In this document: in pieces, positions 31,202 through 44,580 of the stretch
Position numbering within the stretch: the first letter of the stretch is position 1
Layout of the letters: every line of letters begins with the position of its first letter
Assembly (NCBI GenBank): GCA_013044195.1
Contig: JABEUV010000073.1
Location: 1-46,328 of the forward strand
Reading direction: 5' to 3'
Source of the DNA: Elusimicrobiota bacterium
Lineage (GTDB): Bacteria; Elusimicrobiota; Elusimicrobia; UBA1565; UBA9628
Length of the DNA: 46,328 nucleotides
The notes under the pieces: model-generated
Database searches by the model: none
What the model was told of the DNA's origin: nothing
Seen by the model: only the letters and a program-made list of their open reading frames with translations
Position numbers and translations under genes: made by a program

Positions 31202-31216
31202 CGGACCGATCCGTCA
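31199..31216. terminator. Palindrome containing both convergent stop codons
   Basis: TGACGGA-CCGA-TCCGTCA: perfect 7-bp arms. The left arm begins with the TGA of the LOG-family gene and the right arm ends with the complement of the histidine-kinase TGA. No U-tract. Confidence 0.4.
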
Positions 31217-32689
31217 ACCGGGCGTCGGCTCTTCCCAGCGCGGGAGGGTGAAGGAGAAACGGGAGCCGCGGCCCGGGCCGCCTTCGATTTCGAGCGCGGT
31301 TTCGTGCGCGTCGAGGACGGTCTTGACCAAGGTCAGTCCGACGCCGAAGCCGGCGGCGGCCTCGCGTCCGGCCTCGGTGCGGTGCCCGCGCAGGATGACC
31401 TCGCGGTCCTCGGGTGCGACGCCGATGCCGGTGTCGGAAACATGGACGCGTACGCGGCCGCCCGGTTCGGCGCAGAAGCCGATGCGGATCGTCCCGCCTT
31501 CCGGGGTGTACTTGACCGCGTTGCCCAACAGGTTGGTTGCGACGAGCAGCAGGGACTCGGGATCGGCGAGCGCGGCGGGAGCGTCTTCGGGCGTTTCCAG
31601 CCGCACGTTCAGGTTCTTGCGCTCGTAGAGCGGCTGGAGGGCCTTCAGCGCGGAGCCCAGCACGCGCGCCAGGTCCGCGCGCCGCGGGCGCACCGCGAAG
31701 CGTCCGTCCTCCAGGCGGCCGAGGTCCAGAAGGTTGCGCGTCGCCAGCCCCAGCGCGCGGAGATTGGCCTCAATGACGCCGTAGTATTCCGCGCGGCGTC
31801 CGAACGGAGTGGGGGATTCGGTCGTTTTGAGCAGGTCCGTCGCGCCGCCCAGCACGCTCAGCGCGTTGTTGAACTCGTGGCTGGCCATGGACACCAGGCT
31901 TCCCTTCAGGCGACCAAGCTCGGCCTCGCGCGCGAACTGAGCGTTGAGCCGCACGGCCATGTCGCGCATCGCGTCGTAAAGATCCGCGACCTCGGGGCCG
32001 GCGGCGGGCCGCGCGGCGCTCCAGTCTCGGCCGAGCGTCCACTCCTTGGCGCGGCCGCGCAGTTCCACCACGGGACCGATCAGCGAGCGCGACAAAAACA
32101 GCGCGACGAACAGCGCGGCGGCCGCGCCGGCCAGCACGATCAGCGCGGCGGTCAGCCGGGAGACGCGCTCCAGCTCGTCTTCCCGCGCGCGCAGCTGCGC
32201 GACGTTCGCGTCGCCCAGCCGGGCCAGCGGTTCCGCCGCGGACTCCAGACGGTGGCCGAGCCGTCCCGCGCGCGCGGCCTCCGCGCTGGACAGTCTTCCG
32301 AACTTGCGGCGCGCGACCCATTGGCTGGACTCGGCCAAATACGCGGTGAGAGCGTGGTCCATCTCGTCGAGCATCGCGCCGCCTTCGGGCCCGGTGACCG
32401 CGGCAAGCGTTCTTTCGACGCCGCGCACGTCGGCCAAAGACTCCTCCCGGCGCTCCAGCCACGAGCGCTGTCCGGTCAGCAGGAAACGGACCGTCGTCTG
32501 GTCGACGCGGCGCAGGCGGTCGCGCAGGCGCGGCAGGCTCGACAGCACGGCCAGGCTTTCGTGAAGCTGGCTGTCCAGGCGGGCGTGAGCGCGCGCTTGG
32601 AGCAGGAACGCAGTGCCGACGCCCAATGCGTAGAGCAGTATCAGTCCGGCCACCGCGATCAGCTGGGAGCGAAGTCCGGGGTATTTCAT
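31214..32689 (-). CDS. Membrane sensor histidine kinase
   Basis: 491 residues. Two membrane helices (about 8-30 and 178-200) enclose a helical periplasmic sensor rich in Arg/Leu. A HAMP-like segment follows. HisKA dimerisation helix MASHEFNNALSVLGG carries phospho-acceptor His271. The ATPase domain has N box LVATNLLGNAVKYTPEGG, G1 VSDTGIGVAPED and G2 GFGVGLTLVKTV. All catalytic boxes are intact. The HEFNN form (N after F instead of R) is found in a subset of kinases. It is an orphan: no response regulator is adjacent. ATG 32689 lies about 29 nt after the predicted +1 with no ribosome site. Confidence 0.9.
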   Translation of the reverse strand: MKYPGLRSQLIAVAGLILLYALGVGTAFLLQARAHARLDSQLHESLAVLSSLPRLRDRLRRVDQTTVRFLLTGQRSWLERREESLADVRGVERTLAAVTGPEGGAMLDEMDHALTAYLAESSQWVARRKFGRLSSAEAARAGRLGHRLESAAEPLARLGDANVAQLRAREDELERVSRLTAALIVLAGAAAALFVALFLSRSLIGPVVELRGRAKEWTLGRDWSAARPAAGPEVADLYDAMRDMAVRLNAQFAREAELGRLKGSLVSMASHEFNNALSVLGGATDLLKTTESPTPFGRRAEYYGVIEANLRALGLATRNLLDLGRLEDGRFAVRPRRADLARVLGSALKALQPLYERKNLNVRLETPEDAPAALADPESLLLVATNLLGNAVKYTPEGGTIRIGFCAEPGGRVRVHVSDTGIGVAPEDREVILRGHRTEAGREAAAGFGVGLTLVKTVLDAHETALEIEGGPGRGSRFSFTLPRWEEPTPG

Positions 32690-41530: not shown

Positions 41531-42245
41531 AACGCTCGCCGCACTTCTTCTGCTCGCCGCTCCCGCGTGCGCGGGGCCGCGCGTGGCCGTGGTCATCGAC
41601 GACTTCGCGCTGACCTACCCGAAAAATCCACAGGACGCGGAGTGGATGGCCTTCGATGCGCCGCTGACCTTCGCGGTGATGCCGGACTACAAGATCACGA
41701 CCTTGACCGCGAAGCGCGCGCACGAGGCGGGCAAGGAAGTCATCATGCACTACCCGTTCGATCCCTACCAGCGCTACGACCTGAACCCGACCGCGGCCAC
41801 ACCGGGCGATGTGGAGAAAGCATCCAAGCTTTTGGCGCGCATGCTCAAGCAGGTGCCCGGCGCGGTGGGTCTCAACAATCACCGCTCCGACCGGGCCACG
41901 AAGAACCGCCCGCTGATGCGCGCGTTCATGAAGCTCTACAAGCCCACGGGCCTCTACTTCATCGACTCCAAGGTCTCCTCGAAAAGCGTGGCTTATTCCG
42001 AAGCGAAGGCCGCCGGCATCCGCACCGCCGAAAACTTCATCTTTCTAGACACCGCGCAGGTGCACACCAAGCCCTTCTGCGAGAAGATGCTGGGCCGCGC
42101 GATCGCGCACGCGCGCAAATACGGCTCGGTGCTGGTGATCGGCCACCACTATTTCCACGGCACGCTCGACTGCCTAAAAGAAGAGATGCCGCGCTACACG
42201 AAGGAAGGCATTGAGTTCGTCAAGGCGTCGGCGCTGGTGAAGTAG
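41520..42245 (+). CDS. Divergent polysaccharide deacetylase (YibQ/DUF610 family)
   Basis: 241 residues with a Sec signal peptide (TLAALLLLAAPACA-G). Family motifs: VAVVIDDFALTY at the start of the barrel, PLTFAVMPD, EVIMHYPFDPYQRYDLNP, GLNNHRSDRATKNRPLM, LYFIDSKVSS and IGHHYFHGTLDCL. The family shares the NodB-type barrel and often lies next to EnvC-like M23 factors; its substrate is not established. It overlaps the exporter permease gene by 11 bp at its start and the convergent exported kinase-like gene by 26 bp at its end. Confidence 0.88.
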   Translation: MNYKTLAALLLLAAPACAGPRVAVVIDDFALTYPKNPQDAEWMAFDAPLTFAVMPDYKITTLTAKRAHEAGKEVIMHYPFDPYQRYDLNPTAATPGDVEKASKLLARMLKQVPGAVGLNNHRSDRATKNRPLMRAFMKLYKPTGLYFIDSKVSSKSVAYSEAKAAGIRTAENFIFLDTAQVHTKPFCEKMLGRAIAHARKYGSVLVIGHHYFHGTLDCLKEEMPRYTKEGIEFVKASALVK

Positions 42246-42933
42246 GCGTCAGGGCGCGGACGGAGCCGGCGTCCACTAGATAGGCCTGCGTCTTCTCCCG
42301 AGACGCGGTGACGCCGATCATGATGTTCTCGTCGTGCAGGTCCCGGGCGGTCAGTCCCGCCGCGCGTAGACGCCCTTTCAAATCCCTGGTCATGGTATCG
42401 TGCGCGTTGGTTCGCGCGCCCGCGCGGCTGAGTTCGCCCAGGGTGCTTCCGATCACGCGTTCCTTCACCAGGGCGGGCCGGCTCCAGTCCGGTGCGCGCG
42501 CGCCGAACCAAGCGGCCATGCGATCCATCAGCGGCTGAAGACGGTGGGGGATGCGGGTGACCGCGATCAGCCTCGGCCCGGCCCCGGCCTCGGCCAGCGC
42601 GCGGGTCGCCGTGGCTTCGGCCAGCACGTCCCATGTCATCTGGGAGCGGCCGCGCGCGTTCGGCGCGCCGAATCCGTCCGCGGCGATTTTGACCACCCAA
42701 GCGGGTTGGGCCGGATGGGTATAGACGGCGCCGAAATCTCCGCGTCCGAGCGCGGGCAGGGCCGAGTCGCTGAGAGAGGCCGCGTTGTTCAGCCACGTCA
42801 TTCCGCCCAAGCCCAATGCCTGCGCGGGCACGACCGGGAGGGCCGCAATGGGAGTCTCCGCCAGCGGCGCCGCAAGAACCGCGGCGCGCGAGGGGAGCGA
42901 TAGCGAGAGGGCGAACGCCAGCAGAGCGATCAC
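42220..42933 (-). CDS. Exported kinase-like phosphotransferase
   Basis: 237 residues. N-terminal Sec signal (IALLAFALSLSLPSRAA). The rest looks like a small eukaryotic-type or aminoglycoside-type kinase fold: glycine loop ALGRGDFGAVYTH, Lys in WVVKIAADG, Glu in EATATRALAEAG, catalytic loop RDLHDENIMIGV (D-x-H-x2-N) and metal-binding Asp in YLVDAGSV. All catalytic positions appear filled. A kinase exported to the periplasm, where ATP is scarce, is odd. Alternatively the signal acts as a membrane anchor with the domain kept inside. GTG 42933 is set by the -10 element 6 nt upstream; the longer frame would run into the tRNA gene. Confidence 0.7.
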   Translation of the reverse strand: MIALLAFALSLSLPSRAAVLAAPLAETPIAALPVVPAQALGLGGMTWLNNAASLSDSALPALGRGDFGAVYTHPAQPAWVVKIAADGFGAPNARGRSQMTWDVLAEATATRALAEAGAGPRLIAVTRIPHRLQPLMDRMAAWFGARAPDWSRPALVKERVIGSTLGELSRAGARTNAHDTMTRDLKGRLRAAGLTARDLHDENIMIGVTASREKTQAYLVDAGSVRALTPTSPAPTP

Positions 42934-42939
42934 TCTTTC

Positions 42940-42945
42940 AGAATA
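42940..42945 (-). promoter_or_regulatory. Leaderless -10 of the exported kinase-like gene
   Basis: TATTCT on the minus strand, 6 nt before GTG 42933. A GC-rich hairpin GGGCC-GTT-GGCCC (42982-42970) lies just upstream and may end tRNA transcription. Confidence 0.55.
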
Positions 42946-43014
42946 GCCGCGCGCGCCGCGCGACGTCAGGGGCCAACGGCCCACTAAGAAACGGGTCTTT
43001 CGCCCGAAAAATCG

Positions 43015-43098
43015 TAGCGGCGGTGGGAATCGAACCCACAAGAGGTTTCCCCCGAGCGATTTTGAGTCGCTTGCGTCTGCCAGTTCCGCCACGCCGCC
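43015..43098 (-). tRNA. tRNA-Leu, anticodon CAA
   Basis: 84 nt on the minus strand. Acceptor GGCGGCG pairs with CGCCGCT (first pair G-U). D-arm GCGGAACTGGCAGACGC is typical of Leu. Anticodon stem AGCGA/TCGCT encloses loop CTCAAAA, giving CAA. A long variable arm and T-arm GTGGG-TTCGATT-CCCAC follow. The CCA end is not encoded. Reads UUG codons. Confidence 0.92.
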
Positions 43099-43199: not shown

Positions 43200-44135
43200 A
43201 TGACCACGACTCGAACCATACTCATCGTCGACGACGATCAGACCTTGGTCGCGCCGCTGAAGGACGGCCTGGAGTCCGCGGGCTACCGCGTGGCGGTCGC
43301 GTTTGATACGGCGCAGGGGCTTCTGCTCGCTCACCAGGCGCATCCGGACATGATCATCCTGGACTTTTATATGCCCGGGGGAGACGGCGGCTCGCTTTAC
43401 GACCGTCTGCGCGCCGCGCCCGACACGGCGTCGATTCCGGTTGTTTTCTCGACGGGCCTGACGGTCGAGGAACTGCGCGCGAAGGTCAAGCCCAGCGCGA
43501 GAACGTTTTTCCTAAAAAAACCAGTCGGCTTCAACGGATTGCTGGCGATCGTCAATCAGGTGTTGGGGGAGGACCGCCGCGCGCCCGCCGCGTCGTCCGC
43601 GCCGGCTCCGGCGGCGCCCGCGCCTGCCCCGAGGGCGCCGGTGACGGCGCCCGCCGCGTCGCGGCATGACGTTCCCGCCGCCGCGCCGCCGCAGAGGCCG
43701 GCGCGATTCCACGAGTTCGACGTGCGCGTGACCTACGCCGACACCGACAAGCTGGGCATCATCTATTACGCGAACTACCTGAAGTATTTCGAGCAGGGCC
43801 GCACCGAGCTTCTGCGCGCGATGGGCGTGCGCTACCGCGACCTGGAGATCCAGCGCAAGTTGTTCCTGCCCGCCGTCGAGGCGCGCTGCCGCTACTTCGC
43901 GCCCAGCCGCTACGACGACATGCTCACCGTCAGGACCTGGATCGCAGAACTGGGCCGCGCGAGCGTCAGCTTCGAGTGCGACGTCGTCGACAAGGACCTG
44001 GGCGGGCGGCTGTGCGCGCGCGGATTTTCCCGCCACGCCGTCGTCAACGATCTTTGGCGCACGACCCGCATCCCCGAGGACCTGCGCGTCCTGCTGACGC
44101 CGTTCGTCGGCCGCGGACCGTCCGGCGCCGCATAA
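43200..44135 (+). CDS. Response regulator receiver fused to a hotdog acyl-CoA thioesterase
   Basis: 311 residues in one open frame. Residues 1-122 form a CheY-like receiver: IVDDD near 9-13, phospho-acceptor Asp55 in MIILDFYMPGGDG, Ser/Thr in VVFSTG and Lys in FFLKKPVG. Residues 125-172 are an Ala/Pro linker. Residues 175-305 form a YbgC/4HBT hotdog thioesterase: VRVTYADTDKLGIIYYANYL (catalytic Asp near 183), KYFEQGRTELLRAMG and VEARCRYFAPSRYDDMLTV. YbgC-type enzymes hydrolyse short- or acyl-CoA thioesters. The fusion suggests phospho-control of a thioesterase, or a scaffold role. I know of no described example of this pairing. ATG 43200 starts the receiver fold exactly. Confidence 0.88.
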   Translation: MTTTRTILIVDDDQTLVAPLKDGLESAGYRVAVAFDTAQGLLLAHQAHPDMIILDFYMPGGDGGSLYDRLRAAPDTASIPVVFSTGLTVEELRAKVKPSARTFFLKKPVGFNGLLAIVNQVLGEDRRAPAASSAPAPAAPAPAPRAPVTAPAASRHDVPAAAPPQRPARFHEFDVRVTYADTDKLGIIYYANYLKYFEQGRTELLRAMGVRYRDLEIQRKLFLPAVEARCRYFAPSRYDDMLTVRTWIAELGRASVSFECDVVDKDLGGRLCARGFSRHAVVNDLWRTTRIPEDLRVLLTPFVGRGPSGAA

Positions 44136-44210: not shown

Positions 44211-44370
44211 ATGCGAGACGACTCCTCGGACCGCCCGGACTTCTGCGAACTCTATGAGCGCTATTACGACGCCGTCTGCGGCTACGCGCGCTGCCGCGTC
44301 GAAGACGCGGCGGCGGCCGACGACGTGGTCAGCCGCGTCTTCGAGCGCGCGCTCGACGGGCTGCGGAGCT
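44211..44370 (+). pseudogene. 5' fragment of an ECF sigma factor gene
   Basis: ATG 44211 with GGAG upstream begins an ECF sigma region 2: FCELYERYYDAVCGYARCRV and AAAADDVVSRVFERALDGLR. After about 53 residues the frame continues as low-complexity Arg-rich sequence and stops at 44453. Regions 2.4 and 4 are missing. The break coincides with the start of a CpaB-like segment in another frame, so the gene was cut by a deletion. It cannot work as a sigma factor. Confidence 0.65.
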
Positions 44371-44580
44371 CCGATCCTGCAGAACGTCGTCGTCGCGGAC
44401 GTCAAGCGTCCCGAGAAGCTCGACCAGATCGGGGCCGTCGAGCTTTTGCTTAATCCCAACGAGGCTCAGTATGCGGCGTTGAGCTTGGAGCAGGGTTCGC
44501 TGCACCTGGCCCGGCGAGCCTCCGGTGACGCCGAGATGCACCCGATGGAGATGGCGACGTTCCGCAAGCTGTTCAAATAG
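44371..44580 (+). pseudogene. 3' fragment of a CpaB/RcpC-like pilus assembly gene
   Basis: In the frame +1 to the sigma fragment: PILQNVVVADVKRPEKLD, then VELLLNPNEAQYAALSLEQG and SLHLARRASGD, ending FRKLFK. The pattern VLQNV...VTLLVTPEQA..LALA..G.L.LALR is the C-terminal part of Flp pilus proteins CpaB/RcpC. Only about 69 residues remain and no start or N-terminal SAF domain is present. The fusion point with the sigma fragment lies near 44366-44374. Confidence 0.6.

What the first reader, a model, noticed from the sequence alone, without database searches (positions are those of the whole stretch)
43200..44135. Response regulator fused to a hotdog thioesterase
One uninterrupted frame joins an intact receiver (Asp55, Lys near 110) through an Ala/Pro linker to a YbgC-like thioesterase with its Asp-containing DTDKLG motif. 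Known regulator output domains are DNA-binding, cyclase, phosphodiesterase and methylesterase types; a thioesterase output would tie acyl-CoA or acyl-ACP turnover directly to a two-component signal.
Basis: partly seen in the sequence, partly recalled or inferred. Interest (0 to 1): 0.75.

Follow-up and report, generated by a model that had tools for sequence, protein, structure and literature searches.

The report
Phospho-receiver fused to YbgC-type thioesterase
In one order of uncultured Elusimicrobiota bacteria, a signal-receiving switch domain is joined to an enzyme predicted to cut fatty-acyl thioesters; the joint protein is conserved across three families, and distant relatives keep the two parts as neighbouring, mostly overlapping genes, which suggests that environmental signals directly control acyl-chain turnover.

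Summary
ORF 43200-44135 (+) encodes 311 aa: a receiver (PF00072, E 1.8e-17), a 42-aa Ala/Pro linker, and a YbgC/FadM-type hotdog thioesterase (4HBT, E 6e-15; TIGR00051 above cut-off). It is not a sequencing artefact. The fusion is a single full-length ORF in 31 of 56 genomes of the order (16 of 19 in the genus), across three families. The receiver quintet (Asp12/13, Asp55, Thr85, Lys107) is intact in 28 of 28 aligned proteins, the thioesterase Asp183 in 27 of 28. Both domains are under purifying selection; the linker is nearly neutral. Outside the order the thioesterase stands alone, sometimes near accA. In five genomes of four other families its gene is directly followed by, usually overlapping, a single-domain receiver gene of a different lineage, so the partnership probably arose twice. 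Best reading: a two-component-controlled acyl-CoA/acyl-ACP thioesterase (regulation and substrate inferred, not shown). Against strict dependence: two relatives lost the receiver but kept the enzyme, and one genus kept the receiver while its hotdog diverged. Receivers joined to metabolic enzymes are a known kind; I found no description of a hotdog thioesterase output. Novelty: new variant of a known kind.

The parts
43200..44135 (+). REC-linker-hotdog fusion gene, 311 aa, ATG to TAA
   Evidence: homologues full length in 31 of 56 order genomes
43200..43571 (+). Receiver domain, residues 1-124; (beta-alpha)5 in the model
   Evidence: PF00072 E 1.8e-17; AF2 pLDDT mostly 83-97
43362..43364 (+). 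Asp55, predicted phosphorylation site (other quintet residues: Asp12/13, Thr85, Lys107)
   Evidence: D12, D13, D55, K107 28/28; position 85 is T 24 / S 4 in alignment A1
43572..43697 (+). Ala/Pro-rich linker, residues 125-166 (64% A+P), predicted disordered
   Evidence: high dN/dS, length 19-95 aa among relatives
43698..44132 (+). YbgC/FadM-type hotdog thioesterase domain, residues 167-311
   Evidence: 4HBT/4HBT_2, TIGR00051 83.2 bits vs cut-off 68.7, Foldseek top hit 5v10 E 2e-14
43746..43748 (+). Asp183, equivalent of the catalytic Asp of YbgC/4HBT (Asp15 in S. oneidensis YbgC)
   Evidence: aligned to the DTD of 5v10; conserved 27/28; catalytic role from PMC5479800

Best explanation
This is a response regulator whose output is a hotdog acyl-thioesterase. 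A histidine kinase encoded elsewhere in the genome (not identified) is expected to phosphorylate Asp55 of the receiver. Through the flexible linker, the receiver's change of conformation or pairing would then alter activity, assembly or location of the hotdog domain, which hydrolyses acyl-CoA or acyl-ACP using Asp183. That would tie a signal to fatty-acid or phospholipid flux. Shown: the architecture, its conservation, intact active-site residues of both domains, purifying selection on both, and an apparently second receiver-thioesterase pairing as adjacent, mostly overlapping genes in other families. Inferred: phosphorylation, enzymatic activity, substrate, direction of control.
For: Fusion conserved as one ORF in 31 of 56 genomes of the order, three families, down to 43% identity. 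Receiver quintet intact in 28/28 and hotdog Asp183 in 27/28. dN/dS: receiver about 0.05-0.16, hotdog about 0.06-0.28, linker about 0.25-0.93, so the receiver is maintained. Fold match to YbgC structures 5v10, 1s5u, 5t07, the last with decanoyl-CoA. Standalone orthologues outside the order stand next to a receiver gene in G245, G323, G324, G325, G327 (four families); the hotdog frame overlaps the receiver start in four of the five, and in G327 the two genes are 1 bp apart. In G325 the cluster carries accA, fba and a histidine kinase. The coupled receivers fall apart from the fused ones, which suggests independent recruitment.
Against: No kinase gene lies beside the fused gene; the nearest HK in the window is about 10.5 kb away. 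G018 and G042 lost the receiver but kept the hotdog, and g9 genomes have a standalone hotdog, so the enzyme can do without the receiver. In genus g17 the hotdog is diverged (ADAEAS in L033 of G049, which also has a long branch) while the receiver is intact. The linker is long and variable, so strict interdomain allostery is not obvious. The AU rejection of a common origin for fused and coupled receivers is marginal (p 0.046), on a short alignment.
Confidence: 0.6

Rival explanations
1. The hotdog domain is an input or scaffold rather than an output: it binds acyl-CoA/acyl-ACP or holds an oligomer together, and the ligand state tunes phosphorylation or partner binding of the receiver.
For: In genus g17 the hotdog motif is degraded (L033 ADAEAS, below the TIGR00051 cut-off) while the receiver quintet is intact. 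A non-catalytic hotdog regulator of fatty-acid synthesis is known (PMC516016). The receiver's closest relatives are single-domain receivers that act without an output domain.
Against: Asp183 and Tyr179 are retained almost everywhere else, and the hotdog is under purifying selection. Receiver-less relatives keep the intact hotdog.
Confidence: 0.2
2. The receiver is a localisation or adaptor module: it tethers a constitutively active thioesterase to a partner (kinase cluster, membrane complex) and does not change its rate.
For: Long, variable, Ala/Pro-rich linker; the enzyme survives loss of the receiver in G018 and G042; the separate adjacent gene pair in other families fits two proteins that meet rather than one allosteric unit.
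Against: All five phosphotransfer residues are conserved, which a pure tether would not need.
Confidence: 0.15
3. The fusion is neutral: two unrelated genes joined by chance in an ancestor and inherited, with no functional link.
For: The fused gene sits in one conserved neighbourhood (convergent AI-2E transporter, cNMP-binding gene, ileS nearby), so simple vertical descent explains its distribution. Receiver loss in G018 and G042 shows that it is dispensable there.
Against: Both domains are under purifying selection in pairs from several genera, and an apparently independent receiver-hotdog pairing occurs as adjacent genes elsewhere in the phylum.
Confidence: 0.05

Closest known systems
Response regulators with enzymatic outputs (CheB, PleD-type GGDEF, EAL/HD-GYP; receiver fusions to metabolic enzymes)
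   Same: N-terminal canonical receiver, linker, C-terminal enzyme; narrow phyletic range like the archaeal receiver-enzyme fusions
   Different: The output is a hotdog acyl-thioesterase; none of the surveys I could search mentions one
YbgC / FadM-family acyl-CoA thioesterases (TIGR00051, 4HBT_2)
   Same: Fold, Tyr179/Asp183 core, Tyr at the His22/Tyr24 position as in 4HBT and 5v10
   Different: Carries an N-terminal receiver; below the Tol-Pal YbgC equivalog cut-off; no TolB_N in the genome
ComA-ComA2 of Bacillus subtilis
   Same: A response regulator co-transcribed with a hotdog protein, role of the latter unknown (PMC516016)
   Different: Separate genes; ComA is a DNA-binding regulator; ComA2 belongs to 4HBT class II, not the YbgC group
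CBS-domain hotdog proteins (e.g. BH3175)
   Same: A hotdog domain joined to a sensory/regulatory module, proposed to be energy-regulated (PMC516016)
   Different: The module is a nucleotide-binding CBS pair, not a phosphorylatable receiver

Membership tests
Canonical response regulator (receiver domain) | PF00072 match | tested here: met
   63.9 bits vs cut-off 30.2
Canonical response regulator (receiver domain) | Five active-site residues DD, D, T/S, K (definition in PMC12632262) | tested here: met
   D12/D13, D55, T85, K107; conserved in 28/28 relatives, with S for T in 4
Canonical response regulator (receiver domain) | Phosphorylation by a histidine kinase | not testable with these tools
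   No kinase adjacent; nearest window HK at 31214-32689
Response regulator with enzymatic output | Receiver and enzyme in one polypeptide, conserved | tested here: met
Response regulator with enzymatic output | Enzyme activity changes with phosphorylation | not testable with these tools
   needs purified protein
YbgC/FadM family (TIGR00051) | Score above curated cut-off | tested here: met
   83.2 vs 68.7 bits
YbgC/FadM family (TIGR00051) | Catalytic Asp and preceding Tyr | tested here: met
   Y179, D183 (roles from PMC5479800)
YbgC/FadM family (TIGR00051) | Acyl-CoA hydrolysis | not testable with these tools
   needs assay
Tol-Pal YbgC equivalog (TIGR02799) | Score above curated cut-off | tested here: not met
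   89.3 vs 141.35 bits
Tol-Pal YbgC equivalog (TIGR02799) | Tol-Pal genes in the cluster or genome | tested here: not met
   no TolB_N match in G000 (92% complete); no tol-pal genes recognised in the neighbourhoods read

The most novel reading that the evidence does not exclude
Signal control of acyl-thioester hydrolysis is a widespread trait of Elusimicrobiota that evolved at least twice, once as a receiver-thioesterase fusion and once as adjacent, mostly overlapping thioesterase and receiver genes (in G325 within an accA/fba cluster). It would be a two-component system that post-translationally sets fatty-acid or phospholipid supply rather than gene expression.
Probability: 0.4. Interest if true: 0.7.

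Novelty: new variant of a known kind. Interest (0 to 1): 0.52.

Why it matters
Two-component systems usually act on lipid metabolism through transcription. A receiver fixed to an acyl-thioesterase would give a direct, fast route from a signal to the acyl-CoA/acyl-ACP pool. The apparently independent pairing in other families makes the functional link testable with small proteins, and gives YbgC-type enzymes, whose role is still unclear even in Tol-Pal bacteria (PMC5479800), a regulatory context.

Tried and rejected
Sequencing-error or chimera explanation: rejected, because the fusion recurs in many independent assemblies. Tol-Pal YbgC: rejected at equivalog level. Pseudo-receiver: rejected, quintet complete. 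Fused receiver descended from the adjacent receiver genes of other families: disfavoured, since they fall in different parts of the tree (AU p 0.046, marginal). A local kinase partner: none found beside the gene. Search for fusions in other phyla: not possible, the genome search cannot be centred outside the G handles; the genome-contig scan uses exact short peptides and would miss distant fusions; no plasmid record covers both domains. The Galperin 2006 and 2010 output-domain reviews are not held, so a prior listing of this architecture there cannot be excluded. The AU test of 'fused receivers are one clade' did not finish.

Full report
What is there. The frame from ATG 43200 to TAA 44135 encodes 311 aa. 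Pfam assigns Response_reg to residues 7-118 and 4HBT/4HBT_2 to 177-296, all far above cut-off. NCBIfam places the hotdog in the YbgC/FadM subfamily (TIGR00051, 83 vs 68.7 bits) but below the Tol-Pal YbgC equivalog (89 vs 141 bits). An AlphaFold2 model built on 28 aligned sequences has two confident domains and a disordered linker. Foldseek ranks YbgC-type thioesterases first (5v10, 1s5u, 5t07). Contig titles of close relatives name Elusimicrobia.

Is it real and conserved. The same single-frame fusion occurs in 31 of 56 genomes of the order, from three families, and in 16 of 19 of the genus (my count from those tables). Five further order genomes have a hotdog without a receiver (G018, G042 and three of genus g9), one is frame-broken (G024), one is cut by its contig end (G046), and 18 have no hotdog match at the threshold used, some of them incomplete assemblies. 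In the 28-protein alignment D12, D13, D55 and K107 are invariant, position 85 is T or S in all, D181 is invariant and D183 is kept in 27. Approximate dN/dS for eight pairs is about 0.05-0.16 in the receiver and 0.06-0.28 in the hotdog, but about 0.25-0.93 in the linker. The receiver is therefore maintained by selection, not a relic.

Origin. On the hotdog tree the fused proteins lie in one part of a phylum-wide family whose other members stand alone, in f7-f9 of the same class and in f20-f25 of the wider phylum. The fused receivers group with two single-domain receivers from genomes of the same family f1.

The partnership beyond the fusion. In G245 (f20), G323 (f22), G324 and G325 (f23) and G327 (f25) the standalone hotdog gene is directly followed by a single-domain receiver gene on the same strand. 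The hotdog reading frame runs past the receiver start in four of them, and in G327 the genes are 1 bp apart; Pfam confirms the receiver in G325 and G245. In G325 the cluster reads accA, class II fructose-bisphosphate aldolase, hotdog, receiver, phosphoesterase, and further on a histidine kinase and more receivers. In G068 (f7) the hotdog lies with accA, pfkA and, five genes away, a receiver. About 25 other standalone loci have no receiver next to the hotdog, so the pairing is lineage-specific, not universal. The coupled receivers form their own group, away from the fused ones. Forcing fused and coupled receivers together costs 57.6 log units, with a marginal AU p of 0.046. Gene order also differs: hotdog then receiver in the pair, receiver then hotdog in the fusion. 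I read this as probable independent recruitment, which argues for a functional link more strongly than the fusion alone.

Dissociability. G018 keeps only the first residues of the receiver (MPRPILVVDDD) followed directly by the hotdog, and G042 has no receiver, each in a neighbourhood like that of fused relatives. In genus g17 the receiver is intact but the hotdog is diverged; L033 has ADAEAS in place of ADTDKL, and both g17 proteins fall below the TIGR00051 cut-off. In G020, G049 and G050 a second single-domain receiver lies directly upstream of the fused gene.

Mechanism. Shown: architecture, conservation, residues, selection, gene pairing. From established knowledge: receivers switch conformation on Asp phosphorylation (PMC12632262), and YbgC enzymes hydrolyse acyl-CoA with the equivalent Asp, Asn replacement inactivating them (PMC5479800). 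Inferred: a kinase encoded elsewhere phosphorylates D55 and changes the hotdog's activity, assembly or location, so that acyl-CoA or acyl-ACP turnover follows a signal. The accA neighbourhood of some unfused relatives suggests fatty-acid supply, but substrate and direction are unknown. The genome also has a second, FadM-like thioesterase beside a thiolase-like gene, so the fused protein is not its only 4HBT enzyme.

Comparison with the known. Receivers fused to metabolic enzymes are a recognised though scattered kind (PMC5847659). The 2004 hotdog survey notes hotdog proteins with CBS domains and ComA2 beside the response regulator ComA (PMC516016), and in the passages I read no receiver-hotdog protein. 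Literature searches found no description of this architecture, but two key reviews were not available and other phyla could not be surveyed. Hence 'new variant of a known kind'.

Noticed in passing
L091 6899-7655, L092 7175-7989, L093 7153-7918, L096 6949-7666, L118 1761-2505: Standalone YbgC-type hotdog gene followed directly by, usually overlapping, a single-domain receiver gene in four other families of the phylum; in L092 within an accA/fba cluster.
   Followed up: yes
L110 7261-7620, L116 8275-8628, L136 1365-1721: A second, mutually related single-domain receiver gene lies directly upstream of the fused gene in three genomes from three families (4-bp gene overlap in L110).
   Followed up: partly
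L082 7587-8054 (G018) and L080 3002-3445 (G042): Receiver lost from the fusion while the hotdog and neighbourhood remain; in G018 the frame runs from VVDDD straight into the hotdog.
   Followed up: partly
L033 and L034 (genus g17): Hotdog domain diverged (DTD to DAE or DCD, score below the family cut-off) with the receiver intact: possibly a thioesterase turned regulator.
   Followed up: partly
L019 (G008), frame printed; same region as L106: A protein that reads like two FabA-like hotdog repeats (VMPGCWG motif) lies in the same locus as the fused gene in one genome.
   Followed up: no
window 42220-43092 (-): ORF overlaps the tRNA-Leu(CAA) gene at 43014-43098, so its true start is probably further in; weak match to YrbL (E 7e-4, below cut-off).
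   Followed up: no
window 44211-44453 (+): Reads like a truncated ECF sigma factor region 2 (YERYYDAVCGYARCRVEDAAAADDVVSRVFERAL) that then runs into unrelated sequence; possibly a gene remnant.
   Followed up: no
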